Origin: a virus | Reading direction: 5' to 3' (one strand) | IMG/VR virus record: IMGVR_UViG_3300033233_000841 | Location: 1 to 25,145 of that record | Length of the DNA: 25,145 bases | Shown here: positions 3,323 through 21,802 of the stretch, piece by piece | Numbering within the stretch: position 1 is the first letter of the stretch | Layout: the number at the start of each line of letters is the position of its first letter | Made by a program: the position numbers and the translations under genes | The notes under the pieces: generated by a model | What the model was told of the DNA's origin: nothing | The model's database searches: none | The model's input: only the letters and a program-made list of their open reading frames with translations

Positions 3323-5810
3323 GACTGTCTACATCTAAATCCATGATACCCCAACCCACTGCTTGACATAATCCATTAATAGGGCTCATGAATGACTTCT
3401 CAAACTGCGTTTCGATATCAATGAATTCATCTAATCCGAATTCGACTGGCATATCATCCAAGAACGCCATAACTTTATCTTGTAGATTAGGCGACCTTCT
3501 GACATAGATGAATTTTATCTTTTCTCCATCTCTTATAAGAGGGTACTTCGCTTCTAATCCCAAACGATGAAGCATGTTGTTGTAATTAAATGCCGCACGA
3601 ACCTGAATCGGTGTCCCAGCTTTTATTTCACCGTTATCAGATTTATAATCACTGAAGTTGCATCCTCTAGGGAATGCGATAGTCCCAATCGGTTGCTTTG
3701 CGAACTCTTCTCTAATCTCTCTGACTTCAGCTTGAATAGCATCTCTGTTCATGGATTTCAACATATTCTCAACGACTTCTTCAATCTTCTTACGACAGAA
3801 TGAAGGTGTAGAACTGCGAACCATTTCAATGCCCTTCACTTTGAGTTTTGGTTTTGCGTACACAACACCTTCGTTAGCAATGATGTATAGAGCATACTTT
3901 TTCTTCATTACAAAAATGCTTGCAATAGAAGTAGCTTCCTGCTTGAGATGAAACCAGTTCTTCTCGTTATTGATGTATATATTCGAGAACTGATTGTGAA
4001 TGTTCAAGAAGAAAGGCTTTAACATCTTTTCATATACAGCAGTCACAGCATCAGGGAATCTCTCTTTTGTAATACTATACTTTGTGCAGAATCCACCGAA
4101 ATCGATGTAAAGAGAATCTGTATCAGCCGCAATAACAGCATCGTCTGCATTAAAGTTTCTCTTGAACAAAGAATTCGTTTCATCGATTGTGAACTTGATA
4201 AGTTTCTGCCCAGTCAATGTAACAGCAGAGGCCATATCAGGATTGAAGAATCTGAAATTCTCGTTTGCAAGAATACCGTATGCAGAGTTAGCTAGAATCT
4301 TCACAGCATTCTGGAACAAGTCATACTTCTGAGCATTCATCTTATGTTTCGGGTCTTTTGTCTCTTCATAGAGCTTTTCTTCTTTGAGCTTTATGTCCTT
4401 GAATTCTTTACGTTTATCGAAGATACCCTTAACAGCTTTAGGAATGAATCCAAACTCGGGCTTAAATAACAGACCATTCGCAGATATCAGAAGTTTCTCA
4501 TTTCTAATCTTATCTGCAAGCTCTTGACCAGAAATCAAATTACCCGCTAGTCGATACATTTCTGATGCATTGATTCTCTGCAAATCTATATCAAGATAAT
4601 CATTACCAATTTCAGATTGAATCTTACCTACGAATGTTTCAGGTGACATATTCAATGCGAACATAATGTGAGGATACAATGATGTGAAGTCAAAGCTGAC
4701 TACGAAATCATAGTACCCCGCTCTTGGTTCGCTGACATATGCGCCGACAATCTCTTCTTTCTGTTTGTGCCCAGCAGTAGGAAGCACAATCTTCTGAGAT
4801 TTAAGCAAGCTCATGAGGTAACCATCAAACTTTCTGATAGCTGAACCTACTTTACCCAAAGGAGTCTTTGAGAAGTATGCTTGCACTTGCCATAGACCGA
4901 TGAAGTCCAACTTGTCGTGGAGTTTCTTAACAAGCAGAACGTCTTGGATGTTATACTCTACGAACTTATTGAAATCATTACGTCTTAGGTCATCAAGACT
5001 TCCATCGAACTTCACCTTTGTCTTGTCGAGCTCCACTTTGGAAATGTAATCCAATGAGTATGATTCTCGTTCGTTTAACGAATACTTCTTGTACAAATCC
5101 ATGTAATCGAGTAGAGTTATCCCAGCTATTTCAATCTGTTCTTCTCCCATGAATTCTCTGAACTGAACATCGTTCACTGGCGAGAATTTCTTCATAGCTC
5201 CTTCGCCAAGATGACGCTCAATGCGTCTGAGAATGATGGGGACATCATACCAGTTTGAATTCCAACCAGTAATGATATCTGGGCAGTTTGAACGATGCCA
5301 CTTTAGATATCGCTGTAGCATCTCACGCTCGTCCACGCAATGAACGAACTCTGACTTGAGAACTCCCGTGTATGGTGCTGTACCGAAAGTAATCCAGTTC
5401 CCAGTCTTTGTCGAATAGACTGTTATCAGGGTTATTTCATTCCCAGCTATTTTTGGTGATGAAAATCCATGCGTTGAATCTGTTTCAATATCAACGATAT
5501 GAACATCAAGAGCAGGAAGATTGCTAATCAAATCTTTGTCGTAGTATCTGTCTAGCAAGAATCTGGAATCTGGGCTGATATCACCTTCAAATGTAGCATA
5601 GCTCTTTACGAACTCACGCTGAGACATCCATGTATCAAATTCTTTTCTCTTGCATCTGTTACCGAAGATATCTTTGTATTCGCCGTCTGGGGAATGCAAA
5701 TAGCAGTATGGTTGATATGGTTCTATGATGTGCTGGCGCTTACCTTCTTTATCATACTCCCAAAGATGAATCTCGTTTCTGTGAAAATTGTAAAATATGT
5801 TAGCATACAT
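3306..5810 (-). CDS. 43: Family B DNA polymerase, T4 gp43-like
   Basis: An 834-aa replicative polymerase with a 3'-5' proofreading exonuclease; T4 gp43 is about 898 aa. Exonuclease motifs are ExoI at residues 106-110 (VDIET, Asp107 and Glu109), ExoII at 182-189 (GWNSNWYD) and ExoIII at 286-290 (YNIQD). Polymerase motif A is DFTSLYP (374-380), motif B is KILANSAYG (504-512) and motif C is DTDS (563-566). A KKKYALY stretch matches the conserved KxY motif. All catalytic residues are present, so the enzyme should be active. The ATG at 5810 lies inside the 3' end of the upstream homing endonuclease gene, with GAGGAAG about 8 bases before it. No intein or intron interrupts it. Confidence 0.97.
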   Translation of the reverse strand: MYANIFYNFHRNEIHLWEYDKEGKRQHIIEPYQPYCYLHSPDGEYKDIFGNRCKRKEFDTWMSQREFVKSYATFEGDISPDSRFLLDRYYDKDLISNLPALDVHIVDIETDSTHGFSSPKIAGNEITLITVYSTKTGNWITFGTAPYTGVLKSEFVHCVDEREMLQRYLKWHRSNCPDIITGWNSNWYDVPIILRRIERHLGEGAMKKFSPVNDVQFREFMGEEQIEIAGITLLDYMDLYKKYSLNERESYSLDYISKVELDKTKVKFDGSLDDLRRNDFNKFVEYNIQDVLLVKKLHDKLDFIGLWQVQAYFSKTPLGKVGSAIRKFDGYLMSLLKSQKIVLPTAGHKQKEEIVGAYVSEPRAGYYDFVVSFDFTSLYPHIMFALNMSPETFVGKIQSEIGNDYLDIDLQRINASEMYRLAGNLISGQELADKIRNEKLLISANGLLFKPEFGFIPKAVKGIFDKRKEFKDIKLKEEKLYEETKDPKHKMNAQKYDLFQNAVKILANSAYGILANENFRFFNPDMASAVTLTGQKLIKFTIDETNSLFKRNFNADDAVIAADTDSLYIDFGGFCTKYSITKERFPDAVTAVYEKMLKPFFLNIHNQFSNIYINNEKNWFHLKQEATSIASIFVMKKKYALYIIANEGVVYAKPKLKVKGIEMVRSSTPSFCRKKIEEVVENMLKSMNRDAIQAEVREIREEFAKQPIGTIAFPRGCNFSDYKSDNGEIKAGTPIQVRAAFNYNNMLHRLGLEAKYPLIRDGEKIKFIYVRRSPNLQDKVMAFLDDMPVEFGLDEFIDIETQFEKSFMSPINGLCQAVGWGIMDLDVDSLDSLF

Positions 5811-6426
5811 TCGTTATCTTCCTCTTTTCTTCCCAACTTCTTTTTCGTGATTCCCCTATTTTTCGTTTGTGGTCTTCTGATTTCTTCGAACATTTCTGCC
5901 ATTCACTTAAACTTTTTAAATGAGAATCAGAAAACTTCTTACCTAAATGAGAGTTTCTTTGTTTTTCTTTGGTTTCTGATTTGACAGTCTTTCCTCTATG
6001 AAGTAAACTCGATTCTAAAAATCTCTTTGAATGCCATTCTTTATCGTTCTTGTGTTTGAGTTTATGAGAAAGACTAATAGCGGCTCGATGTTCAACTGAC
6101 ATTGATTTACCACGGTTAGAACCACCCCAACCACCAGAAGAAATGTTATATAAAATTTCTTTGTTTGTATCGACAAATTCAAGAGTAAGAATCTCAGCTT
6201 CCAATTTGCTTAACGATTCAGAATCACTACAGTAACATAGTATCTCCAACTTAAAATTTTCTTCACCGTATTTGTTAATCGCTCTTTTAAGCAATTTACC
6301 ACTACCAAGATAACCATCTGACAAGTCATATGATTTGTGCATTCCGATGTATATCTTACCAGTTAAGATATTAGTAGTTTGATAGATAAAATAATAAGGA
6401 GATGCTTCAGGTTTCAAACAAATCAT
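5800..6426 (-). CDS. GIY-YIG homing endonuclease with NUMOD3 repeats (Seg-like)
   Basis: A 208-aa free-standing homing endonuclease. The N-terminal GIY-YIG domain spans about residues 10-95: PYYFIYQTTN carries the GIY half, KIYIG (24-28) the YIG half, and Glu78 is the likely metal ligand. Downstream come Lys/Arg-rich NUMOD3-type repeats (about 100-200), which in this family bind DNA. The ATG overlaps the radical SAM stop (TAATG) and has AGGGAGG 4 bases upstream. Its last 11 bases overlap the polymerase gene, so its 3' end supplies the polymerase ribosome binding site. The N-terminal half is closely related to the GIY-YIG protein at 20957-21697, pointing to a duplicated or spreading family. 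Its likely role is to cut phage DNA lacking it and drive its own inheritance. Confidence 0.9.
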   Translation of the reverse strand: MICLKPEASPYYFIYQTTNILTGKIYIGMHKSYDLSDGYLGSGKLLKRAINKYGEENFKLEILCYCSDSESLSKLEAEILTLEFVDTNKEILYNISSGGWGGSNRGKSMSVEHRAAISLSHKLKHKNDKEWHSKRFLESSLLHRGKTVKSETKEKQRNSHLGKKFSDSHLKSLSEWQKCSKKSEDHKRKIGESRKRSWEEKRKITNVC

Positions 6427-7772
6427 TAAACCTCCCTAAAATCTAATAGCTTATCTTCTGTTTTCTCTTCCAATTTCAACTGCACATTATACTCTCGTTG
6501 AAGTCTCTGTTTCAAGCCAGTGAGTAGATTATTGCTTCTCTGAAATCCATAATTTACTTTACCGCGTATCTCGATGTGCTTTTGTTTACGTTCACATGTC
6601 AACTTCAGCTTATCAAAAATTACATCAATCGGGTCATTATACAAATCGATATCAGCCTCTGCAAAAAAGTTCAATGAATTCAGTATCGATTTATACTCTC
6701 TCAATTTCTCTGCTGATAGAAAATTGGTCTTGCCAGAATTGGTATATTCCCTCATTATGTTTACTCGCACGTTCAGTTTATTTCTTGAACAAAATTCTAT
6801 GTTCTCCTCGACTTCAGGTGCCGTTAAGTCCCCTCCTATCAGACACAACATGAATGGTTGAATCCCAACTTCTCTACATATCGTAATTGCTTTCTGGATG
6901 TTCTCTGCTGAATTGTGGTACTTGTCGATACTTTTGAGGAAACGCTCGTTGACGTTCTCGAACCCAATCTTGACATCTTCAAATCCAAGGTCATGCAATA
7001 ACTGTGGCACTTCTTTGTTTAAGAACAGCGTTACTTCGAAGCCTTCCTGACAGATGTATTTCATACCCTTGAGATTGAGGGCTTTTAGCTTCTTGAGGAA
7101 CTCTGTGAAGATTCCTATAGAGCATGATAGATTATCGTCTACAAACGTGATGTAGCGAACTCCAGAGTCATAATATGACTTGATTTGTGCAACCATCTCA
7201 TCAACGTCATGGAACTTGTACTTCTGCTTGTAGATGAAATACGTTGGGCACATGTTACATTTGCGCGGGCACCCGTATGTGATACGCATACTTGCTCTAG
7301 TAGATGCCCCGACCTTTGGGTAGCGATTCATCATATCTTGAGTAAGCACAACGTCTGATACTTCAAAGTCCGTATCGATGATTGTCACATTTGATGTCCA
7401 CATAATCATATCTTCAATCTTATGCTTCTCAACTGTAGGATAGATTCCCATAATGGACACAGGGGTCTTTATAAGATTGATGAATTTGTCAAAGAACTCG
7501 TTCTTGTCTGCATCAGGCGGGAACTCGCCCATGTTCACGATTATTTTTGTATACTTGTCTTTGTTCTTATCGATGAACTTCAAACAATCTTCGAGAATCT
7601 CCAACTTACCAGCTTTGTCTGCTTGTCTGTCGTAAGCCATAAGATTCAAATCCAATAAATCATACGACTCGTTGAGATTTTTTGCTTGCTTCAAAAGAAG
7701 AAGTGGATACGGGAAATACTTCGGGTATTTGTTTGTTGATGCATTATAAAGCATCTGTATGAGTAGAATCAT
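6426..7772 (-). CDS. Radical SAM protein, B12-binding-like N-terminus
   Basis: A 448-aa radical SAM enzyme. Residues 168-175 contain the CxxxCxxC iron-sulfur cluster motif (CPRKCNMC), followed by a GGDL-type SAM-binding stretch near residues 314-317. The first 150 residues look like the alternating beta-alpha Rossmann segment found before the radical SAM core in B12-binding members, but I see no canonical DxHxxG cobalamin motif. C-terminal residues 380-448 are Lys/Glu rich. Its ATG overlaps the stop of a 59-aa gene (ATGA), which in turn overlaps a TS-family enzyme, so the three are probably coupled. The substrate is unknown. Nucleotide or DNA modification is an inference from the neighbours only; tRNA or peptide modification are alternatives. 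Confidence 0.85.
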   Translation of the reverse strand: MILLIQMLYNASTNKYPKYFPYPLLLLKQAKNLNESYDLLDLNLMAYDRQADKAGKLEILEDCLKFIDKNKDKYTKIIVNMGEFPPDADKNEFFDKFINLIKTPVSIMGIYPTVEKHKIEDMIMWTSNVTIIDTDFEVSDVVLTQDMMNRYPKVGASTRASMRITYGCPRKCNMCPTYFIYKQKYKFHDVDEMVAQIKSYYDSGVRYITFVDDNLSCSIGIFTEFLKKLKALNLKGMKYICQEGFEVTLFLNKEVPQLLHDLGFEDVKIGFENVNERFLKSIDKYHNSAENIQKAITICREVGIQPFMLCLIGGDLTAPEVEENIEFCSRNKLNVRVNIMREYTNSGKTNFLSAEKLREYKSILNSLNFFAEADIDLYNDPIDVIFDKLKLTCERKQKHIEIRGKVNYGFQRSNNLLTGLKQRLQREYNVQLKLEEKTEDKLLDFREV

Positions 7773-7948
7773 TTCATGTCCTCGAATGGAGATTTATCGC
7801 TAGGTTCATATTCACCTATGTAATCTTTTATGTTCTTCATCAAGAGAGCTGGTGTAACATGCTGATATTCCTTATTGTGTTCATCCAGATGCCAGAGAGC
7901 TTCTTTGAGCAACGCTATCGCAAACAACTTATCGAAATCTGCTGTCAT
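7769..7948 (-). CDS. Small hypothetical protein, 59 aa
   Basis: A 59-aa frame beginning MTADFDKLFAIALLKEALWH and ending with PFEDMK and a TGA stop. It fills the otherwise empty gap between the TS-family gene (20-base overlap at its start) and the radical SAM gene (ATGA overlap at its end). This tight fit on both sides is the main support. The ribosome binding site is weak (GGGGTTGTGGG before ATG), so it is probably translated by coupling. The protein is predicted mostly helical and acidic at its C-terminus. I do not recognise a family. Confidence 0.7.
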   Translation of the reverse strand: MTADFDKLFAIALLKEALWHLDEHNKEYQHVTPALLMKNIKDYIGEYEPSDKSPFEDMK

Positions 7949-8618
7949 CCCACAACCCCAATAACGCTTTTGTATTCTTCATCTCATCCCCGCTCGAATG
8001 AATATGCCAAGAGAAAGCAACGCATGTTACTTCTTGTAACACCATATTCGACTGTTCAGCGAGCCATTTACCGAGATTTATCAAAGCTGTATAGTCTGCA
8101 TACCCCGACTTGCTGACTCTCTGTGAGCGAAAAGCGGCATTCAGATAGAGCCTACCATTTCTCGGTTTGATATCGATGACCAACAAACAAGGCTGTTTGT
8201 ACATGTTCTTGATATCGTATGGGGAATAAACCATCAATTCGCAACGCTTGACGTTCTTACCCTGCTTCAGAATCTTTAGGACTTCTGTAACCTGATTGAA
8301 TTTGTCATCGTAGCGTGTCATCCTGCCCCAATACGAGTCTTTCCAGTTAGGCTTGATGGTTTCATAGTTCAGTTCCCCATCTATCACGGAAATGTCTGGA
8401 GCGATGAATGTGACTGCTGAAGCATAATCTATGCGCTCATCACCAAAAATGCTTCTGAACTCTTTGTCAAATTCCTCCTCGTAGTTGAACTCTGTGATAG
8501 AGACAACACCATTCTGAATTTCTATGATATCACCAAGATTAGTACCTTGATTCAGGATAGTTCTCGATGCTTTCATCCATGCTCCTGCCGCTGAACTCGC
8601 TTTGATTTCTGTTATCAT
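7929..8618 (-). CDS. Thymidylate synthase-family enzyme, possible dCMP hydroxymethylase
   Basis: A 229-aa protein of the ThyA fold, shorter than E. coli ThyA (264 aa). It aligns to ThyA with a constant offset of two residues. Pro143-Cys144 matches the catalytic Cys146, Arg164-Ser165 matches Arg166-Ser167 with the same 20-residue spacing from the Cys, and Lys124-Arg125 matches the phosphate-binding Arg126-Arg127. His205 and His207 match His207 and Tyr209. Two specificity positions differ. Asp175 stands where ThyA has Asn177; in the family this Asn selects uracil, and Asp is found in dCMP hydroxymethylases such as T4 gp42. Arg167 replaces the folate-contacting Asp169. It may therefore act on a cytosine nucleotide, but the folate site looks changed. 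The ATG overlaps the preceding micro-ORF (ATGA). Confidence 0.75.
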   Translation of the reverse strand: MITEIKASSAAGAWMKASRTILNQGTNLGDIIEIQNGVVSITEFNYEEEFDKEFRSIFGDERIDYASAVTFIAPDISVIDGELNYETIKPNWKDSYWGRMTRYDDKFNQVTEVLKILKQGKNVKRCELMVYSPYDIKNMYKQPCLLVIDIKPRNGRLYLNAAFRSQRVSKSGYADYTALINLGKWLAEQSNMVLQEVTCVAFSWHIHSSGDEMKNTKALLGLWDDSRFR

Positions 8619-8686: not shown

Positions 8687-8856
8687 ATCTCTTCCTCATC
8701 TCTCCAACCACAGACTGGACAATACATTCGACAGCTTATGCAAGATTCGCAAGGTGGATGCAAATGACATGAACAGTTCTCAGACTCTTCAAATCTCAAG
8801 ATACCTTCACATCCATCTCTACCACATACTTCACCTTCGTCAAAACATATTGTCAT
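8683..8856 (-). CDS. Small Cys-rich zinc-binding protein, 57 aa
   Basis: A 57-aa protein with ten Cys and two His in clusters: an N-terminal CGRDGC pair, a CSCHLHPPCESC central cluster and a C-terminal CPVCGW. The paired Cys spacing suggests at least two zinc-binding knuckles, and the CxCHxxPPCxxC pattern recurs in small proteins of large phages. I chose the ATG at 8856 because it overlaps the macro domain stop codon (ATGA). An in-frame ATG at 8868 would add four residues and has no better ribosome binding site. No function is assigned; it may bind RNA, DNA or a protein partner. Confidence 0.75.
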   Translation of the reverse strand: MTICFDEGEVCGRDGCEGILRFEESENCSCHLHPPCESCISCRMYCPVCGWRDEEEI

Positions 8857-9320
8857 TTTCTGTCCCATTTTACAAGAGTGTGATTGTAACCCTCTAGTTC
8901 TTCATCGATTATTTTTGAGATAATATTCCAGTCCCCACCAGCAAGACCAGCACCATAAAGAGGGTACCCGATTCTTACGCTGGGTGGAAATGCTTCTTTG
9001 ATTCGCTTGAATACTGAACGTACATGCTCATATTCTGTGCGTACTTGATTCGCTCCACAACCAAACTGACTGTACCCGTTGACAATCCAGAAGTGATATT
9101 TGAGATTGTTACTCTGAACATTACACGTTGAGATTGTACCCATTTTGTTCCTGTCGCCGAAAGCAGTGGTTTTGTCTGCTTCAAACGCCTGCGGGAAGTA
9201 TCGCATAACACCAACAGCAATCCCAGCGCCAAAGTTGTGAAAGCAATTGCATTGGTGAACGATAACATCAAACTGTCCTTCGTTTGCTAATTTAAGTAAG
9301 TCTCCTGTGATAACATTCAT
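8853..9320 (-). CDS. Macro domain protein (ADP-ribose-1''-phosphate phosphatase-like)
   Basis: A 155-aa single macro domain. It starts with the typical ITGDLL strand-loop, then FDVIVHQCNCFHNFGAGIAV, where the Asn and the Gly-Ala-Gly loop form the ADP-ribose pocket. A later GYPLYGAGLAGGDW loop contacts the phosphates. Single-domain phage members of this type act on ADP-ribose-1''-phosphate or related ADP-ribose derivatives and could recycle or erase ADP-ribose marks, but the actual substrate here is unknown. The ATG at 9320 follows a GGAGAGG ribosome binding site; a 9-residue longer frame has none. It overlaps the small zinc finger frame upstream and the Cys-rich gene downstream. Confidence 0.88.
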   Translation of the reverse strand: MNVITGDLLKLANEGQFDVIVHQCNCFHNFGAGIAVGVMRYFPQAFEADKTTAFGDRNKMGTISTCNVQSNNLKYHFWIVNGYSQFGCGANQVRTEYEHVRSVFKRIKEAFPPSVRIGYPLYGAGLAGGDWNIISKIIDEELEGYNHTLVKWDRK

Positions 9321-9479
9321 CCTAAATCCTCTCCACATCGCTTGCATGACATATTCGGTTCATCAGAGCATGAGTTATACCACAACGTCATCATGTCCTC
9401 TCGCTCTACACCAGAAGTTTACCCAACCTTCGCAATCTGTGAACAAGTATTTCCACCACCAGTAGCTAAACCATTTCAT
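9317..9479 (-). pseudogene. Small zinc finger gene split by a frameshift
   Basis: Two overlapping frames look like one protein of about 54 residues. The first (9479 to 9375, 34 aa) begins MKWFSYWWWKYLFTD and ends in RGHDDVVV. The second (9394 to 9317, 25 aa) reads TLWYNSCSDEPNMSCKRCG and ends in EDLG. Joined near 9383, they give a CxxxGHxxVWYN...EPNMxCKRCG pattern, familiar in small phage zinc finger proteins. The break is a net change of one base. Both ends fit the operon: ATGA overlap with the 60-aa gene upstream and with the macro gene downstream. The second frame has its own GAGAGG ribosome binding site, so separate translation is possible. It could be a true mutation, a sequencing error or a programmed shift. 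Confidence 0.55.
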
Positions 9480-11951: not shown

Positions 11952-12359
11952 TTACACCTTCTTCTTTTCATCCTTCACAAAAGTCCCGTTCTGCATCTTA
12001 CCTGTTCGATTCTTTATTTCATCCCATGCTACATCAAGGCAATCTTCGATGGTAGTTCCTGATTGTTTGCACAGAAGAATCAAAGTCACTACGATATCAC
12101 CAACATGGTCTTTGATATCTTCACCTTTTGCTACTGCATCCGCCAGTTCTCCCATTTCAGATACAGACTTCAGCGTTTGGGTCTTTGGGTCTGACTTCGA
12201 AAGAATACCTCTAACATGCCCCCAATGGAGTATGTCTGCTTCTCTATCAGAGAAACGAGAACCCGAATATATTGTTTGAGTAGACTCCAAACGAATCCCA
12301 TGAATAGGACATTTAGCATCTGCTTGTGACATTGGTACACATGTGCATACTTGGTACAT
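11952..12359 (-). CDS. mazG: MazG-like nucleotide pyrophosphohydrolase
   Basis: A 135-aa all-alpha NTP pyrophosphohydrolase of the MazG-like family, which hydrolyses nucleoside triphosphates to monophosphates and can lower alarmone or non-canonical dNTP levels. The metal-binding helices are at about residues 63-95: SEMGELADAV supplies Glu68 and Glu71, and DHVGDIVV supplies Asp84 and Asp88. The NRTGKMQNGTFVK tail is characteristic of phage members. The first 20 residues add a Cys/His cluster (CTC...CPIH) that could bind metal and is not part of the core family. GGAGGAAT lies before the ATG. It follows the ribonucleotide reductase genes, in keeping with dNTP-pool control. Confidence 0.85.
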   Translation of the reverse strand: MYQVCTCVPMSQADAKCPIHGIRLESTQTIYSGSRFSDREADILHWGHVRGILSKSDPKTQTLKSVSEMGELADAVAKGEDIKDHVGDIVVTLILLCKQSGTTIEDCLDVAWDEIKNRTGKMQNGTFVKDEKKKV

Positions 12360-12466: not shown

Positions 12467-12474
12467 TATTTATA
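12467..12474 (-). promoter_or_regulatory. T4-type late promoter motif TATAAATA
   Basis: The minus strand reads TATAAATA, the T4 late promoter -10 consensus, across the stop codon of the reductase 3' fragment. Transcription would begin near 12460 and pass through the structured leader into the MazG-like gene. No gp55-like late sigma factor is visible in this window, and the motif is expected about twice per strand by chance in DNA this AT-rich, so the call is tentative. Confidence 0.35.
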
Positions 12475-12952
12475 TCCCACAAACCCCAGTGGGGCAAGCA
12501 ACATCTTTTGCTACATCTTCTGCTGTCTTTGAACGCTTCGAATACTTATTAACATCCAAAGGCTTCAAAGGACTGTCGCCACGACTACCTTCACGATAGA
12601 ATGTGATACCTTTGAGTTTTGTAATATACTTCAACACAACTTCTGATAGCTCATCGACTTTGTAATGATTAGGTAAATTTACAGTATTGTGTACTGGTAT
12701 ACCATTCGCCATATACGAATGCGAGTCATCATCAATCTCCAAATCAACTGTATGTTTTTTATCGCACATCTCTACCCGAATGATTTTCTTCTCTGTAGGG
12801 ATTAGTAAAGAACGCAGATTTATAACATGAGAGTTAGTAATATCATCATCAAGTTCTATCAAGTCTTTACGAATATCATCTAAAGTGTGAGACTTTCTGT
12901 ATTGTACTGGTATTCTGTCATCAGTCTTTGATATATTTTTTAAGATGTTCAT
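12470..12952 (-). CDS. nrdJ: Split-intein C-half plus C-terminal extein of class II ribonucleotide reductase
   Basis: A 160-aa product with two parts. Residues 1-89 are the C-terminal half of a split intein, ending in the canonical HN junction (GIPVHN); the +1 residue is Thr90. Residues 90-160 are the end of the reductase: TVNLPNHYKVDELSEVVLKY, then GITFYREGSRGD, matching the conserved tail that normally follows AVSK. The last residues, CPTGVC, give a CxxxxC pair likely to reduce the active site. The ATG at 12952 has GGGGG seven bases upstream and overlaps the nuclease gene by 32 bases. Trans-splicing to the product of 13960-17628 would rebuild the enzyme. The C-half is long (89 aa against about 35-45 usual); its first 50 residues have no obvious intein role. 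Confidence 0.9.
   Translation of the reverse strand: MNILKNISKTDDRIPVQYRKSHTLDDIRKDLIELDDDITNSHVINLRSLLIPTEKKIIRVEMCDKKHTVDLEIDDDSHSYMANGIPVHNTVNLPNHYKVDELSEVVLKYITKLKGITFYREGSRGDSPLKPLDVNKYSKRSKTAEDVAKDVACPTGVCGI
12686..12952 (-). mobile_element. Split intein 3, C-terminal half
   Basis: Intein block F is recognisable in HTVDLEIDDDSHSYMANG and block G in IPVHN followed by Thr. The penultimate His and terminal Asn needed for Asn cyclisation are present, so splicing chemistry at this end should be standard. It pairs with the N-half at 13963-14256. The two halves and the nuclease gene between them lie in three different reading frames, so this is a real separation, not a single frameshift. Confidence 0.88.
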
Positions 12953-13955
12953 AAAATGCCCCCATATCTTCTATTTCGTTTTCTGTTACGATTATGATTT
13001 CTTCAGTCAAATATCTTAACTTTTCATTAAAAAATTGCTCATATAAATATTCGGGTTTTACTTCTATTAAATATGTTTTACCCCTCAAGATGAATAGTAT
13101 ATCAGGAACATATGCTCTATCGAAAGTCTCTTTTTCACGTTTATATTTGATGTGATATGGTTCGGTATCTATATAACTCACATCATTTATATTTTCTAAA
13201 AACTCTAAAACTCGTTTTTCCCAAGATGACCTATAATACAGTGGGTGATTATTTTTAAAGGTATCGAAGAACCCACATATACCCCGTATACCCTTTTTTG
13301 TCCCACCGCGCACGATTCGCATAGCAGAAGTTATAGAAACATATGTCGAATACCATTTATTAACATCGGAATCAGAATTCAAACTACATGATATGAATTC
13401 TGGATATTCTTTACATAATATATCTATAATATTATTGTTTCTTAAATTAGACCTTTTCCACTCTATCACATATCTAATCTTTTCCTCCGCAGATTTCAAA
13501 CAATAATTCATTTTCTTTGTGAACCCTGATAGTTTTGAATACTCCGAATCGGGCAATTCTTCAAATATACCCAAATCCCAAGCCTTTCTTTTACCTTTTT
13601 TTATTATAGCGTTCTTATATGATGCGTGTATAGAACCACTTTTTTTAATTCTACCTTCTCTCTGAAGTATGGTAAGTTCCTTCATTTTCTTGCTATCTTT
13701 TACCCACTGAGCAAACTTACTGTCATGACCACATTTTTTTTCAACTGAAATCATCAAAGAATGACATGTATTCCAATTAAAATTCACCAATGGTAATTTA
13801 TGTCTAAAATATAATCCAAAACATCTTTTATCTCTTATGCCTAGCGATTCATAATTCTCTTTAATCATGAGAGAGATTATATCTTCGATATTGTAATCAT
13901 CTACATCTATGATTTTTCTTTTTATCCATCTGTTCACGACCCATTTATATACCAA
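12921..13955 (-). CDS. Free-standing PD-(D/E)xK-type homing endonuclease within the split intein
   Basis: A 344-aa protein encoded between the two halves of the split intein. The C-terminal nuclease region shows SSWE (Glu246), then AYVPD (Asp285), then IEVK (Glu298, Lys300), the spacing of a PD-(D/E)xK site. The YRSSWE and EVKP context resembles the T4 gp4 head-completion nuclease group. The first 230 residues are basic and helical, probably DNA-binding. The start is a TTG at 13955, seven bases after GGAGAG, which is embedded in the last codons of the N-intein frame. Split inteins with an endonuclease gene between the halves are known from environmental phage-like sequences; the role here is presumably homing into intein-free reductase genes. 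Codon use is AT-richer than in the flanking exteins. Confidence 0.82.
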   Translation of the reverse strand: MVYKWVVNRWIKRKIIDVDDYNIEDIISLMIKENYESLGIRDKRCFGLYFRHKLPLVNFNWNTCHSLMISVEKKCGHDSKFAQWVKDSKKMKELTILQREGRIKKSGSIHASYKNAIIKKGKRKAWDLGIFEELPDSEYSKLSGFTKKMNYCLKSAEEKIRYVIEWKRSNLRNNNIIDILCKEYPEFISCSLNSDSDVNKWYSTYVSITSAMRIVRGGTKKGIRGICGFFDTFKNNHPLYYRSSWEKRVLEFLENINDVSYIDTEPYHIKYKREKETFDRAYVPDILFILRGKTYLIEVKPEYLYEQFFNEKLRYLTEEIIIVTENEIEDMGAFYEHLKKYIKD

Positions 13956-13959
13956 GCGA

Positions 13960-16900
13960 TTACTCTCCTATAGATATTGTCTCATCTATATTTATATATC
14001 TCGCTTTTTTCCACCCATCAGCAGTATGTATTCTATGATTCGGGGTGCATTCTACAAAAGACCCGTCGCTAAAAGTTACTCGAATTATCTCAGCGATTCC
14101 ATTGTTATATATATTTCTTATGTTAACCTCTTGATTTCTATGATTTTTTGTTTTACCTGTATATTTACAAAAAGTATCGGGGACACCGGTAGAAATCTCG
14201 TCTAAATATAAAACTTCGTCATCCACAATAACCATAGTGGTGTCAGAAGCCATACATTTGCTGACAGCTTGGTCAAGATATCTCTGTGCGGCTTCCTGAA
14301 TAGCAATGTGCTGTTCTGGTGTTATGTCAAGAGCTCCTTCGAAAGCTGAGATATCTTCTCCAGATTCTGTCATCTTCTGGAAGAGGTTATCTGCAATGAT
14401 TTCCTTCTTCTTGTCATCACCGCTGAAGAATGTTCTCTCGTATACGGGAGCATATATAGGCTCGATACCTGAGGACACATCAGCGAGAATGCTTGTTGTT
14501 CCTGTTGGGGCTTGTGTATTCAAACACACGTTTCGGATTCCATCTTTGCGAATCTTCTCACGAATCTTTGTCGGTAGAGTCTTGACGAACGCTGACTTCA
14601 AGAACTTCTCGGGGTCAAACTTCTGGAATGAACCCTTCTCTACGGCGAGTTCTGTTGAGTAGTAGTATGAATGATTACGGAGAATCTCATAAATCATTTC
14701 TGCAAACTCTACACCGGCTTCTGACGAATACTTGATACCCATCTTCACCATACCGTAATGTAACCCACACAAACCAAGACCGATACGTCTGTCGCTAGTC
14801 CCAACTTCTTTCAGCTTGGAAAGCGGATATTCGTTTACTTGCAATACATTGTCGAGGAATCGTACACCAACTTCAACTGTCTGTTCAAATGCTTTTCTGT
14901 CGAACTTCTTGTTCTTCACAAAGTTGCTGACATTGATACTACCAAGGTCACATGAAGCATATGCTGGTCCTGGGATTTCGCCACAATTTTTTACACAAAT
15001 ACCAGAAGAAACTGTATAATCCCCAATACCAGAAGTTATAACATGATAATTGTGATTGTCATCTACAGTAATATTATATACATCCTCGTAACCACAAAAT
15101 TTAACAGATTTTACTTTGTGGTTTTCTGAACATTGATTAGCAAAATTCGTAAATGAACCAAATCTAAACTCATTTGCTAAATGTTGAGGTAGACCAAACT
15201 GTTTTGCGTACTTCACCCAATCTCGTTTCTGGATTCTACCAAGCATCTTAAATAACTTTTTTCCATGCTCTAAAATCTGCTCATTTGTGTGCCCCGTGTA
15301 TCTACCATTAGTCTCCCCATTATGAGTAGCAAAATGTGTTTTCCAACTCTCTGTCATTTTGTGATACGGATTCTTTTCACCGAGCATTCTGACAGAATGA
15401 AATTTTGTATGTTCATCTTTCAACATTGCAACAAGATTGTCGGGGGAATCATTTTTAGAGTTGAAATCTGAATGATGTATTGCATATTCATAATCAATTT
15501 CTCCCTTAAAAAACTCATACACAAGTCTATATTGTCTACGATTCCGTCTATGACCGCCTATCATTTCTGCACCAGACTTGTAAATCTGTCTGTACTTATT
15601 AGAATCGAATGAATAGAAAGGAGTTATAGATTCACCAATAAGCAAATCTTTCAGTTCTTTATATTCCCCATTTAACATCAAAATTTTGTGGTCTGGGGTA
15701 GCTCTCAATATGCTATCATCATCTAAAACAAGCTCATACACTTCTCTTTTTTCGCCTGTTTTTCTTGGGTTTCTGCCCCACTTTATCTCAGTTTTTCCTG
15801 TTTGAATATTTGTAGAATAAACAGCAACGTCTTTCTTTTCTTCAGTCAAAGTTTTTATAGATACAGCATTTCTACCATCCGCTACTGCTATAAGCGTGTC
15901 GCCAACGATGCACGGATTCGTTGACTCAATCTTCGAGTAGTACCAACTGTTGCTCATCTCGTTCATATAACCGAGATTCATGATACCAGGTTCACCACAT
16001 TTATGAGCATTCGTGATAATCTTGTCCCATATATCTTTTGCTTTGACTGTTTTCATGACTTTACCTGCCCATATCAAATCCCAGTTAGCATCATCTCTAA
16101 CAGCTTGAATGAACTTGTTGTCAATCTCGACTGACACGTTTGCATTGTTCAACTGACCGAGGTCGAGCTTCACATGCAAGAACTCTTCGATATCTGGATG
16201 ATACACAGACAATGATATCATCAAAGCGGCTCTACGACCACCGCCAGTTTTGATTGTGCCAGCAACAACATCAGCGCAACCCATAAAAGAGATAGGCCCT
16301 GATGAGAAGCCACCATTGGTTGTGATAGCAATACCTTTTGGTCTCAACTTCGAGAACGAAAGTCCGACTCCACCACCTGTGCCAGAAATCATCAAAATCT
16401 CTTTGAGCATTTCACCAATGCTCTCTCTCGAATCTTCGACGGAGATGATATTACATTGTTTTGTTAGATACCCGGAATCTATGACCATCGTATGGGTTTC
16501 TGGTTCTACACAACAATACACTTTCTCAATTTGATAAGGTTCAACAGATACAACCTTAACATTATAAGATTTCTTCGGTTTAACCGAAGCAAACATTTTT
16601 TCTCGATGTGATTTTTTAATAATCATTTTATTATCATACATAGAGGACTTCAAAAATCCCAAACCGAAACACGGGAAACCGTCCTCTTTCGTAAATGGAT
16701 TTATTGTTCTAAACAATCTTACATTAGTTGTTATAATTCCAGAAAAATATGCAATTTTTCTTATAGACATTAAAACATCAGAATTTTTATTATTTAGAAG
16801 GACATTTCCAATTTTATCTACCGTGCCATCTGTAGCAATAAGCCCCGCAATGAATCCCCTTAGATAAGAACGACTTTTTGACAAACTAGGAAGTTCTTTC

Positions 16901-17628
16901 CAAGCACCCGGAAGTCCACATTTACCTACAGCTTCTCCAATTTCAAACCCTTTAACTTTCCTAATTGACGGAGATTCAAAGAAATCATACATAAGATGTG
17001 TTTTACCATTGAACAGAACTACATCACAATAATCTCCGTTCCATGATTTTGGTGTGTGTCTTGTACCATCACCAAATACTATCCCATGTCGAACCCCCTC
17101 GTTATAATCAGATTCTAAATACTCAAAGTCAGATATACTTTGTGTGGGGATTCGTTTACCAATAAGCTCGTATGTTTTATGAACTTTCTTTGTGCCCTGA
17201 ACTATCCATTCATGTTCTGCGGTTGCTTTTAATACATCACCGTTCTGCAATGTGATATTATAAAGCATCTGTTCACCAAAACATGACCATTTTGACTGTC
17301 TGAATTTTCCACCAATAGACAAAACGGAAATCTCTTTATCTATAAGGGAACTCGCTTCAAAGACCCCCTCTTTTGTATGAATTAGGGTGTCCCCGCTAAC
17401 ACAATTCAAAAGATACGGTTTCGACTTCCCAGCATTCGTAATAATGCGGCCGCCGGGAATAAAATTGAAGTTAATCAATTCGTTATAAAACTTTGTGTAC
17501 CATTCATCATATTTCTCTGGAGATTCTGCGAGGGCTATTGCTCTCGACATACGTTTGCTGACATCCTCCCAAGTTGTTTCTCCCTGTTGTAGGTATCTTT
17601 CGGATAATATTATTTCAGATAATCTCAT
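13960..17628 (-). CDS. nrdJ: Class II ribonucleotide reductase precursor, N-terminal part with two inteins and a split-intein N-half
   Basis: A 1222-aa precursor of the adenosylcobalamin-type (NrdJ) reductase that makes deoxyribonucleotides. Exteins are residues 1-75, 392-572 and 882-1124; with the 71-residue tail from 12470-12685 they total 570 aa. Key catalytic features are Cys392 (first redox Cys, in NCNIISVEDS), the N-x-C-x-E active-site motif (Asn571, Cys882, Glu884 after splicing), Cys893 (CDLGSI, second redox Cys) and the APTGTTS loop (1040-1046). Class II is inferred from the ISVEDS and TGGGRRAALM stretches; no NrdB gene is present here. Each intein interrupts a conserved catalytic or core motif. 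Splicing of all three is needed for activity. The ATG follows AAGGAGAT. Confidence 0.95.
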   Translation of the reverse strand: MRLSEIILSERYLQQGETTWEDVSKRMSRAIALAESPEKYDEWYTKFYNELINFNFIPGGRIITNAGKSKPYLLNCVSGDTLIHTKEGVFEASSLIDKEISVLSIGGKFRQSKWSCFGEQMLYNITLQNGDVLKATAEHEWIVQGTKKVHKTYELIGKRIPTQSISDFEYLESDYNEGVRHGIVFGDGTRHTPKSWNGDYCDVVLFNGKTHLMYDFFESPSIRKVKGFEIGEAVGKCGLPGAWKELPSLSKSRSYLRGFIAGLIATDGTVDKIGNVLLNNKNSDVLMSIRKIAYFSGIITTNVRLFRTINPFTKEDGFPCFGLGFLKSSMYDNKMIIKKSHREKMFASVKPKKSYNVKVVSVEPYQIEKVYCCVEPETHTMVIDSGYLTKQCNIISVEDSRESIGEMLKEILMISGTGGGVGLSFSKLRPKGIAITTNGGFSSGPISFMGCADVVAGTIKTGGGRRAALMISLSVYHPDIEEFLHVKLDLGQLNNANVSVEIDNKFIQAVRDDANWDLIWAGKVMKTVKAKDIWDKIITNAHKCGEPGIMNLGYMNEMSNSWYYSKIESTNPCIVGDTLIAVADGRNAVSIKTLTEEKKDVAVYSTNIQTGKTEIKWGRNPRKTGEKREVYELVLDDDSILRATPDHKILMLNGEYKELKDLLIGESITPFYSFDSNKYRQIYKSGAEMIGGHRRNRRQYRLVYEFFKGEIDYEYAIHHSDFNSKNDSPDNLVAMLKDEHTKFHSVRMLGEKNPYHKMTESWKTHFATHNGETNGRYTGHTNEQILEHGKKLFKMLGRIQKRDWVKYAKQFGLPQHLANEFRFGSFTNFANQCSENHKVKSVKFCGYEDVYNITVDDNHNYHVITSGIGDYTVSSGICVKNCGEIPGPAYASCDLGSINVSNFVKNKKFDRKAFEQTVEVGVRFLDNVLQVNEYPLSKLKEVGTSDRRIGLGLCGLHYGMVKMGIKYSSEAGVEFAEMIYEILRNHSYYYSTELAVEKGSFQKFDPEKFLKSAFVKTLPTKIREKIRKDGIRNVCLNTQAPTGTTSILADVSSGIEPIYAPVYERTFFSGDDKKKEIIADNLFQKMTESGEDISAFEGALDITPEQHIAIQEAAQRYLDQAVSKCMASDTTMVIVDDEVLYLDEISTGVPDTFCKYTGKTKNHRNQEVNIRNIYNNGIAEIIRVTFSDGSFVECTPNHRIHTADGWKKARYINIDETISIGE
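13963..14256 (-). mobile_element. Split intein 3, N-terminal half (98 aa)
   Basis: Residues 1125-1222 of the reductase frame. Block A begins at Cys1125 after the extein sequence LDQAVSK. Block B is FVECTPNHRIHT, with the TxxH motif that assists the first acyl shift. The frame stops 98 residues later, without the C-terminal blocks, and these are found 1 kb further on at 12686-12952. The length is that of known split-intein N-halves. Confidence 0.88.
13969..13996 (-). promoter_or_regulatory. Late promoter motif and hairpin controlling the intein endonuclease gene
   Basis: Minus strand TATAAATA occupies 13996-13989. A 7-bp hairpin has its 5' arm TATAGAT at 13990-13984, an 8-base loop, and its 3' arm ATCTATA at 13975-13969. 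The 3' arm abuts the GGAGAG ribosome binding site (13968-13963) of the endonuclease gene. A transcript starting about six bases after the TATAAATA motif lacks the 5' arm, so only read-through transcripts from the reductase can form the hairpin. This parallels late-only expression of I-TevI in T4. Confidence 0.5.
14986..15912 (-). mobile_element. Intein 2 with HNH endonuclease, inserted in the NPCGE active-site motif
   Basis: Residues 573-881 (309 aa). It splits the reductase motif between NP and CGE. Block A starts at Cys573 (CIVGDTLIAV), block B is ILRATPDHKIL with a TxxH, and the end is ICVKN followed by Cys882. Lys replaces the usual penultimate His. The central endonuclease is HNH type: YAIHHSDFNSKNDSPDNLVA (715-734) followed by His740 and His744. 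It is probably a complete, mobile intein. Confidence 0.92.
16456..17403 (-). mobile_element. Intein 1 with LAGLIDADG endonuclease and C-terminal Gln
   Basis: Residues 76-391 (316 aa), inserted before the first redox Cys (LLN then Cys392). Block A begins CVSGDTLIHTKEG and block B is KATAEHEWIV with a TxxH. Two LAGLIDADG helices are visible: HGIVFGDGT (181-189) and FIAGLIATDGTV (259-270). The intein ends DSGYLTKQ, so the terminal residue is Gln rather than Asn and the penultimate residue is Lys rather than His. Gln-ending inteins are known but rare, for example in an iridovirus ribonucleotide reductase. Confidence 0.92.
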
Positions 17629-17682: not shown

Positions 17683-18216
17683 TCAACTCTCCTTCATTAT
17701 CTGGTTATAAAACACATTCAAGACATCGAATAATTTGAGGTCTTTCATATATGTCTCGCTAACCATTGCTTCATCTGGTCCCCATATCTGCATCACATTA
17801 CTTGTTGATATATGTGAAAACATCAACTGGTCAAAAGACTCCCACTCAATTACTTCATTGAATCCTTCGTTCTCAAGTCTCCCTATGTTCGCTTCGATAT
17901 CAAGAATGTTCCATATGTTTGAATAATCGTGATAGCAACGAGCATCCCAACGAATCGATAAATGGTCATTCGACTCTGGTAATGTATCATAACTAGGACA
18001 CGGTTTCAATACAGATAGGTCAAACAAATGATTCAAAATATCAAATTTCTCAAACAAACGCCAAACAGATACGACTCTGGTTCCTGAAGCAATTCTACAA
18101 TTCTCATAAAGCATATGATTCAAAGAGAATATCTGAATCTCTGAATACAGAGAATTGTAGAATTTATTGTAGTAAATCCCATTGTTGTTTATGCTGATGT
18201 AATTCGCTGAAATCAT
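17683..18216 (-). CDS. Hypothetical protein, 177 aa
   Basis: A 177-aa frame whose ATG overlaps the GroES stop (ATGA). It is rich in Asn, Tyr and Trp, mildly acidic, and has no signal peptide or membrane segment. I see no catalytic motif. It lies between groES and the reductase, separated from the latter by 54 bases that hold the reductase ribosome binding site. I do not recognise a family. Confidence 0.75.
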   Translation of the reverse strand: MISANYISINNNGIYYNKFYNSLYSEIQIFSLNHMLYENCRIASGTRVVSVWRLFEKFDILNHLFDLSVLKPCPSYDTLPESNDHLSIRWDARCYHDYSNIWNILDIEANIGRLENEGFNEVIEWESFDQLMFSHISTSNVMQIWGPDEAMVSETYMKDLKLFDVLNVFYNQIMKES

Positions 18217-18503
18217 ACAGTTTTTGGTTCAGACTCTGTGATATAAGCAAAGATATCCTCTTGCTTCATCGCTCTGTAGAATTTACCTTCAAGCTCGAAC
18301 ATCTCTCCATTCATACGACTGACGATAACGGTATCACCGACATCGATGCCGCGGACTTTTGACCCTACGGATACAACGAGAGCCTGACTCTGTGCTTCTG
18401 TGTCTGCTCTAGCTGTAAGAATAAGCCCACCTTCTGATACTGTTTCTTTTGCGATACGGATTTCTACAACTACGATATCACCTACTGCTTTGACTTGTTT
18501 CAT
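18213..18503 (-). CDS. groES: GroES-like co-chaperonin
   Basis: A 96-aa co-chaperonin of the GroES/Cpn10 fold. GDIVVVEIRIAKETVSEGGL matches the first beta-barrel strands, the variable segment after it corresponds to the mobile loop, and GDTVIVSRMNGEMFELEG followed by EDIFAYI matches the conserved C-terminal half (GDxVxF...GxEVxxxG...EDILAxI). Phages use such proteins to redirect the host GroEL, as T4 gp31 does for capsid folding. The length is that of bacterial GroES (97 aa). AGGAGG lies 8 bases before the ATG. Confidence 0.88.
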   Translation of the reverse strand: MKQVKAVGDIVVVEIRIAKETVSEGGLILTARADTEAQSQALVVSVGSKVRGIDVGDTVIVSRMNGEMFELEGKFYRAMKQEDIFAYITESEPKTV

Positions 18504-20956: not shown

Positions 20957-21697
20957 TTAGTTGTCAACCAATCTTGAATCTCCAATTTTATTAGTCTTTC
21001 TCCCCAGAATCCACCCATTTCTAATATAAGAGTCTAAAAGAGTTGATTTTATTAGCTTATTCATCCAAGTACCATCAACATATTTAGAAATATATTTAGT
21101 ATCTTTTCTGTGTTCGCTCATCTTCTTTTTAACAACATCGGTGTATTTAGAAAACAAAATCCCCCTCTTTAGTTGGGTGTCTAATCTTTTCTCAATCTGC
21201 TCTTTCGTCTGCTTCTTCCCTATATGTGAGAGAATACATTTATTTCTATATTCTGGGTTAGTCCATAGTAACTTCCGAGACTTTCTATTACTCTCACACG
21301 CTTTCTTTGATTGCTTTCTACCTGTATTAGCCTTTATTATACCTAAAATCTTCTTTCTTTTAGATTCTTCTGTTAGACATATAGAATGGATTCCTCCGTG
21401 ACCACCTACCTTCAGATTATACAGTATGTCTCTATTCAGTTTAAAGAAATCATCATTCAAGAAGTCATATTCTAATGCGTACATCTCATGTATATTATGA
21501 CAGAAGCACAACACCGTTCTCAAGAAATTATCAACACCATATTTCTTTATAGCATATTGTAAAATCTTACCGCTACCAAGATAATCATCATCGAGATTGT
21601 TCGTTTTGTGAGCGCCGATATAGATTTTACCATTTACTAAATTTGTTGTTTGATAGACGAAATAATATGGTCCAGTTTCTGGTACAGAAGTTTGCAT
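20957..21697 (-). CDS. GIY-YIG homing endonuclease with NUMOD3 repeats
   Basis: A 246-aa free-standing homing endonuclease. The GIY-YIG domain is at about residues 10-95 (PYYFVYQTTN, then KIYIG at 24-28, Glu76 as likely ligand). Basic NUMOD3-type repeats follow (about 115-200). The last 40 residues (WMNKLIKSTLLDSYIRNGWI, then LGRK) match the C-terminal motif of Seg-type enzymes. I chose the ATG at 21697, preceded by GAGGTGAG; a longer frame to 21772 would begin inside the structured leader. Its N-terminal domain is closely similar to that of the protein at 5800-6426. It sits just downstream of the gp46-like gene. Confidence 0.9.
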   Translation of the reverse strand: MQTSVPETGPYYFVYQTTNLVNGKIYIGAHKTNNLDDDYLGSGKILQYAIKKYGVDNFLRTVLCFCHNIHEMYALEYDFLNDDFFKLNRDILYNLKVGGHGGIHSICLTEESKRKKILGIIKANTGRKQSKKACESNRKSRKLLWTNPEYRNKCILSHIGKKQTKEQIEKRLDTQLKRGILFSKYTDVVKKKMSEHRKDTKYISKYVDGTWMNKLIKSTLLDSYIRNGWILGRKTNKIGDSRLVDN

Positions 21698-21802
21698 TTG
21701 ACTCACCTCATATAAATAGTAGGAGAGGGACAACCAAGAAACCTCACTTGGCTGGTTGAATGTTAGTAGCACTCAACCTTACCTCTTAATATTATTTATA
21801 TA
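21698..21802 (-). promoter_or_regulatory. Late promoter motif and folded leader of the GIY-YIG gene
   Basis: Minus strand TATAAATA (21800-21793) overlaps the stop of the gp46-like gene. Its exact complement TATTTATA lies at 21718-21711, extending to a 9-10 bp stem (21802-21793 with 21718-21709). The 3' arm touches the GAGGTGAG ribosome binding site (21709-21702). Between the arms are a 9-bp hairpin with one G-T pair (21778-21770 with 21762-21754) and a 5-bp hairpin (21751-21747 with 21738-21734). Read-through RNA can fold the long stem and hide the site; RNA started at TATAAATA cannot. Confidence 0.55.

What the first reader, a model, noticed from the sequence alone, without database searches (positions are those of the whole stretch)
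12470..17628. One ribonucleotide reductase carries three inteins, each at a different catalytic or core motif
Joining extein segments 1-75, 392-572, 882-1124 and the tail at 12470-12685 rebuilds a 570-aa class II reductase without gaps. The three inteins carry three different nuclease types: LAGLIDADG, HNH and a separate PD-(D/E)xK gene. Insertion points are directly before the first redox Cys, inside NPCGE and between AVSK and TVNLP. The intein-free enzyme cannot form unless all three splice, one of them in trans. That makes dNTP supply depend on splicing and gives three possible control points. Inteins in reductases are well known; three with three nuclease classes plus a split one is unusual.
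Basis: partly seen in the sequence, partly recalled or inferred. Interest (0 to 1): 0.85.

Follow-up and report, generated by a model that had tools for sequence, protein, structure and literature searches.

The report
Phage ribonucleotide reductase with three inteins
A phage gene for a DNA-building-block enzyme is interrupted by three self-removing protein inserts, one of them split over two genes with an unusual DNA-cutting gene between the halves; the arrangement is mostly a known kind of selfish element, but that nuclease type has not, to my knowledge, been described in such a place.

Summary
Joining the four extein pieces gives a 570-aa class II (B12-dependent) ribonucleotide reductase, NrdJ. 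It scores 2.6e-156 to NrdJ_Z and aligns along its length to solved T. maritima NrdJ. Uninterrupted phage relatives at 62-72% identity run straight through the predicted junctions. Inteins 1 and 2 lie directly before the residues aligned with redox Cys134 and thiyl-radical Cys322. Intein 3 lies at SK|T. It is split: N-half, separate nuclease gene, C-half, in three reading frames.

Most of this is a known kind. RNR genes with four inteins are published. Other viral contigs here carry two or three inteins in NrdJ, at the same sites. Split inteins flanking a nuclease gene ('fractured genes') were described in 2009. Inteins 1 and 2 belong to mobile families: intein 2 is 55-69% identical in reductases whose exteins are only 28-47% identical. 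All the inserts share an AT-rich composition foreign to the exteins.

The new point is the nuclease between the halves of intein 3. Its C-terminal domain resembles T4-type gp4 head-completion nuclease (PD-(D/E)xK), not the EDxHD/Vsr-like type expected there. Its other 230 residues match nothing found here. It is probably a homing endonuclease. Splicing as a control of dNTP supply has no supporting evidence.

The parts
17404..17628 (-). NrdJ extein 1 (aa 1-75)
   Evidence: ATG after AAGGAG ribosome site
16456..17403 (-). Intein 1 (316 aa), LAGLIDADG-type, C...Q|C; inserted before the residue aligned with T. maritima Cys134
   Evidence: TIGR01445 28.9 bits; LAGLIDADG_3 0.0007; relative in Thermobifida phage P318 and 7 viral loci at the same site
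15913..16455 (-). NrdJ extein 2 (181 aa)
14986..15912 (-). Intein 2 (309 aa) with HNH domain, at NP|CGE before the thiyl-radical Cys (aligned with Cys322)
   Evidence: TIGR01445 42.3 bits, TIGR01443 17.9 bits; HNH_3 3.9e-6; 26 viral relatives all at NP|CGE; precisely absent at DNA level in L004
14257..14985 (-). NrdJ extein 3 (243 aa)
13960..14256 (-). N-half of split intein 3 (98 aa) and stop codon
   Evidence: TIGR01445 20.8 bits just under cut-off; HINT domain match; aligns with contiguous site-3 mini-intein of L054
12921..13955 (-). Separate nuclease gene (344 aa, TTG start, AGGAG ribosome site): orphan N-terminal 230 aa plus gp4-like PD-(D/E)xK domain; predicted homing endonuclease
   Evidence: phrog_218 1e-11 residues 236-307; YRSSWE / PD / EVK aligned with gp4 proteins; ribosome site
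12686..12952 (-). C-half of split intein 3 (89 aa), ends SYMANGIPVHN
   Evidence: TIGR01443 21.2 bits over cut-off
12470..12685 (-). NrdJ extein 4 (71 aa, C-terminal Cys pair CPTGVC) and stop
   Evidence: TIGR02504 positions 564-605; continuous in L111, L112, L189 and L004

Best explanation
This is a phage class II ribonucleotide reductase gene colonised by three independent intein-based homing elements. Intein 1 (LAGLIDADG) and intein 2 (HNH) splice in cis from the 1222-aa precursor. Intein 3 is a natural split intein: its N-half ends the precursor, its C-half starts the 160-aa protein, and the two associate and trans-splice to join the last 71 residues, giving the 570-aa enzyme. The nuclease gene between the halves most likely acts as a free-standing homing endonuclease. 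It would cut intein-free nrdJ at the SK|T codons, so that repair copies both halves and the nuclease gene into the cut allele. Shown here: gene structure, motifs, extein continuity, relatedness, horizontal spread of inteins 1 and 2, composition. Inferred: splicing, trans-splicing, DNA cleavage and homing.
For: Joined extein is NrdJ. Uninterrupted relatives are continuous at all three sites. Intein 2 is found in 26 further viral loci, always at NP|CGE; over 21 distinct loci it is 55-69% identical to the window intein against 28-47% for the exteins, and in 226 of 231 pairs the inteins are more alike than the exteins; 6 of the 26 loci have lost the HNH domain. Intein 1 relatives are at the same site in P318 and 7 viral loci. 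Contiguous inteins occupy site 3 in L052, L054 and L190, and the joined split halves align with the L054 one through the conserved blocks. GC3 is 0.26-0.32 in inteins and nuclease against 0.40-0.46 in exteins 1-3 and four other phage genes examined. Nuclease: gp4-like catalytic residues intact, AGGAG 9 nt before TTG. L042 holds the known layout (helicase N-half, nuclease, C-half) as a control.
Against: No biochemical proof of splicing or cleavage. Intein 1 has Lys-Gln instead of His-Asn at its end and intein 2 has Lys-Asn; both may splice slowly, though these endings recur in their families. The N-half scores just under the curated intein cut-off. The nuclease has no close relative in any collection searched, so its homing role rests on position, composition and intact active-site residues. 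Extein 4 is also low in GC3 (0.31), but it is short.
Confidence: 0.85

Rival explanations
1. Splicing of the three inteins is a regulatory switch: the enzyme is held inactive until redox or other signals allow splicing, timing dNTP supply.
For: Two inteins sit directly before catalytic cysteines, which are also their +1 nucleophiles; splicing is necessary for an intact enzyme.
Against: Nearest relatives lack all three inteins; the inserts have foreign composition and inteins 1 and 2 spread horizontally. A published analysis finds inteins preferentially in conserved sites and explains it by homing and hindered loss (PMC2814812).
Confidence: 0.06
2. Intein 3 is really one contiguous intein with an internal PD-(D/E)xK domain, and the split is a sequencing or assembly frameshift.
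For: The three ORFs lie in different frames and nearly abut.
Against: Two separate indels would be needed, one in a stretch of about 12 bases before 13955 and one of about 18 bases before 12952, because stops at 13968 and 12971 close the frames. The nuclease has a good ribosome site, and the N-half ends where the split is expected.
Confidence: 0.04
3. The nuclease is not a homing enzyme but a stray gp4-type packaging nuclease gene that happened to land in the intein and split it.
For: Its catalytic domain matches only gp4 head-completion proteins.
Against: The two gp4 proteins aligned here are 141 and 146 aa and lack the 230-aa N-terminal region. The gene sits exactly at the intein split, has the composition of the other mobile inserts, and fits the known fractured-gene layout.
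Confidence: 0.12
4. The gene is a decaying pseudogene: inteins accumulated because the reductase is no longer needed.
For: Decay with inteins has been proposed for nrdA of some Campylobacter phages (PMC3653736).
Against: All four extein pieces are open, the catalytic cysteines and substrate motifs are kept, and GC3 of exteins 1-3 is like that of other phage genes.
Confidence: 0.05

Closest known systems
Fractured genes with split inteins (Dassa et al. 2009, cited in PMC3653736; gp41-1, NrdJ-1, IMPDH-1 split inteins)
   Same: Split intein in a phage-type replication or nucleotide gene with a nuclease ORF between the halves; nrdJ is among the reported hosts
   Different: Here the nuclease is gp4-like PD-(D/E)xK, not EDxHD/Vsr-like; the site is SK|T (NrdJ-1 sits at NPC|SEI, from memory); two further conventional inteins are in the same gene
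Trichodesmium erythraeum ribonucleotide reductase with four inteins (PMC1635734)
   Same: Several inteins in one RNR
   Different: Cellular gene; its intein sites and nuclease types were not compared here
NrdJ of L052 (IMGVR_UViG_3300015263_001568)
   Same: Viral NrdJ with three inteins, two at the same sites (NP|CGE and SK|T)
   Different: All three contiguous and LAGLIDADG-like by eye
Thermobifida phage P318 RNR intein
   Same: Same insertion site, 40% identical, also ends in Gln
   Different: Single intein in a more distant reductase (extein about 26% identical)
F-CphI of cyanophage S-PM2 (PMC6083498)
   Same: A phage housekeeping-type nuclease domain (endonuclease VII there) turned homing endonuclease
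   Different: Collaborates with an intron in psbA, not with a split intein

Membership tests
Class II ribonucleotide reductase (NrdJ_Z) | Full-length match over curated cut-off | tested here: met
   521.7 bits vs cut-off 399.95, residues 8-538
Class II ribonucleotide reductase (NrdJ_Z) | Redox and radical cysteines | tested here: met
   C76, C257, C268 align with C134, C322, C333 of 1xjk
Class 1 intein (inteins 1-3) | N-terminal nucleophile, block B TxxH, C-terminal Asn/Gln, +1 Cys/Ser/Thr | tested here: met
   C1, TAEH/TPDH/TPNH, Q/N/N, +1 C/C/T; Gln endings are known to splice (PMC4031507)
Class 1 intein (inteins 1-3) | Precise absence in relatives | tested here: met
Class 1 intein (inteins 1-3) | Splicing activity | not testable with these tools
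   no experiment possible
Fractured gene (split intein with intervening nuclease gene) | N-half and C-half on separate ORFs around a nuclease ORF | tested here: met
   same layout in control L042
EDxHD / Vsr-like homing endonuclease of fractured genes | EDxHD-type catalytic domain | tested here: not met
   No match to DUF559/MTES_1575, which hit the L042 nuclease; no similarity to it; PD...EVK motif instead
gp4-like PD-(D/E)xK nuclease domain | Profile match and catalytic residues | tested here: met
   phrog_218 1e-11; YRSSWE, PD, EVK aligned
gp4 head-completion protein as a whole | About 140-150 aa protein without long N-terminal extension | tested here: not met
   344 aa; aligned gp4 proteins are 141 and 146 aa
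Homing endonuclease | Site-specific cleavage of the empty site | not testable with these tools
   needs biochemistry

The most novel reading that the evidence does not exclude
The gene between the halves of split intein 3 is a new type of homing endonuclease: a T4 gp4-type head-completion nuclease domain fused to a new 230-aa DNA-binding region, driving the spread of a split intein. One reductase would then host three elements with three unrelated nuclease chemistries.
Probability: 0.5. Interest if true: 0.6.

Novelty: new variant of a known kind. Interest (0 to 1): 0.45.

Why it matters
It shows one essential enzyme gene collecting three separate homing elements at conserved codons, and it suggests that a phage packaging-type nuclease can be recruited as a homing endonuclease beside a split intein. 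It also offers a new natural split intein at a different NrdJ site, next to two cis inteins, for testing orthogonal splicing.

Tried and rejected
A single-sequence fold of the nuclease was useless (pLDDT 34.6), so no fold search was made. Close relatives of the nuclease were sought in viral contigs, genomes, phages and plasmids: none beyond its gp4-like domain. Patterns for HN|T[VI]N looking for further inteins at SK|T found only L054 in an NrdJ in viral contigs and none in genomes. The idea that the 50 extra residues at the start of the C-half are a leftover of a LAGLIDADG domain got no support against shuffled sequence; their partial match to the L054 mini-intein (p 0.012) falls on its block B region and is probably chance. 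A single-protein scan for intein 1 in viral contigs found nothing; the two-sequence alignment did. The automatic site-2 counts are slightly inflated because tblastn runs past the junction in L052, L069, L070, L185 and L190.

Full report
What is there. On the minus strand lie three adjacent ORFs: 17628-13960 (1222 aa), 13955-12921 (344 aa, TTG start) and 12952-12470 (160 aa). The window is the whole of a 25,145-base virus record, probably a fragment, with a T4-like replication set: DNA polymerase, RecA-like protein, gp46-like protein, helicase. Cutting the first ORF at CVSGDT...LTKQ|C, CIVGDT...CVKN|C and SK|CMASDT, and the third at PVHN|T, leaves extein pieces of 75, 181, 243 and 71 aa, which join to 570 aa.

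The extein is a class II reductase. The joined protein matches TIGR02504 (NrdJ_Z) with 521.7 bits over residues 8-538 and aligns with T. maritima NrdJ, 1xjk, in three consecutive stretches covering 5-534. In that alignment C76 falls on C134, C257 on C322 and C268 on C333; from general knowledge of this enzyme, C134 and C333 are the redox pair and C322 carries the thiyl radical. Intein 1 therefore sits directly before the first redox cysteine and intein 2 directly before the radical cysteine.

The junctions are real. In L004, 72% identical, the reductase runs without a break through sites 2 and 3, and at the DNA level intein 2 (14986-15912) is exactly what is missing. In L111, L112 and L189 (68, 62 and 62%) the enzyme runs without a break through all three sites. 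Among 80 viral loci of the A1 scan, site 1 is empty wherever it is covered, site 2 is interrupted in L185, L187 and L190, and site 3 only in L190.

The inteins. All three match intein splicing profiles, the split N-half just under the curated cut-off and the C-half over it. Intein 2 carries an HNH domain. Its relatives in 26 viral loci and in a 735-kb uncultured phage all sit at NP|CGE. Over 21 distinct loci they are 55-69% identical to it, while the flanking reductases are 28-47% identical; in 226 of 231 pairs the inteins are more alike than the exteins; 6 of the 26 viral loci have lost the HNH domain. That is the signature of horizontal homing. Intein 1 has two LAGLIDADG-like motifs and relatives at the same site in Thermobifida phage P318 and seven viral loci; it ends in Gln, as do most of them. 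Gln-ended inteins are known to splice (PMC4031507). Contiguous inteins are found at site 3 in L052, L054 and L190. The joined halves of intein 3 align with the L054 mini-intein through the conserved blocks, with about 50 extra residues at the split.

The split and the nuclease. The N-half stops at 13960; the nuclease starts 4 bases on, with AGGAG 9 bases before its TTG; the C-half starts inside the last 32 bases of the nuclease gene in a third frame. Two indels in very short stretches would be needed to explain this as an error. The C-terminal 100 residues of the nuclease match gp4 head-completion nucleases (phrog_218, 1e-11; YRSSWE, PD, EVK all kept). The phage records listed are nearly all annotated as gp4, head completion or head closure. 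The first 230 residues match nothing in the collections searched. It shows no similarity to the EDxHD/Vsr-like nuclease of the fractured helicase gene in L042, which served as a control for the known layout.

Composition. GC at third codon positions is 0.26-0.32 in the inteins and the nuclease and 0.27-0.34 in two GIY-YIG genes, against 0.40-0.46 in exteins 1-3, polymerase, helicase, gp46-like and methylase genes. The short extein 4 (0.31) is the exception.

How it most likely works. Two inteins splice in cis and the third in trans, and the nuclease acts as a free-standing homing endonuclease for the split element. The structure, kinship and composition are shown; the splicing and cutting are inferred. 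Regulation by splicing is possible but has no support here. Published analysis finds that inteins prefer conserved sites, explained by homing and hindered loss (PMC2814812).

What is known. A T. erythraeum RNR has four inteins (PMC1635734). Nine intein-interrupted nrdA and nrdJ genes were reported in ocean metagenomes by Dassa et al. 2009, as cited in PMC3653736; the original paper is not in the library and was not read, so its nuclease family (EDxHD) is taken from later papers and from memory. Phage NrdJ with two or three inteins occurs elsewhere in the same virus collection. Six homing endonuclease families are recognised, PD-(D/E)xK among them, and a cyanophage endonuclease VII-like protein was shown to be a further one (PMC6083498). 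A gp4-like nuclease as the partner of a split intein is, as far as I could find, new; the library searched is partial.

Noticed in passing
window 5800-6426 (-) and 20957-21772 (-): Two free-standing GIY-YIG (Seg-like) homing endonuclease genes, one overlapping the start of the DNA polymerase gene, one downstream of the gp46-like gene; both AT-rich like the inteins.
   Followed up: partly
window 16456-16476; L090, L191, L192, L194, L196, L206: Intein 1 and most of its relatives at this RNR site end in Gln; L193 and L195 end in Asn. A family in which the last residue varies at one site.
   Followed up: partly
L042:1701-4792: A DnaB/gp41-like helicase gene split by an intein, with a DUF559/Vsr-like nuclease gene between the halves, directly upstream of an intact nrdJ.
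   Followed up: partly
L052:2961-9575: Viral NrdJ ORF of 2204 aa with three contiguous inteins, at a GGG|CFSG site, NP|CGE and SK|T.
   Followed up: partly
L082-L086, L088: HNH-less mini-intein forms of intein 2 (152-170 aa) at the same site.
   Followed up: partly
window 18213-18503, 11952-12359, 7929-8618, 6426-7772, 8853-9347: Cpn10 (GroES), MazG-like, thymidylate synthase-like and radical SAM genes around nrdJ, plus an ORF that reads like a macro domain by eye but has no Pfam match.
   Followed up: no
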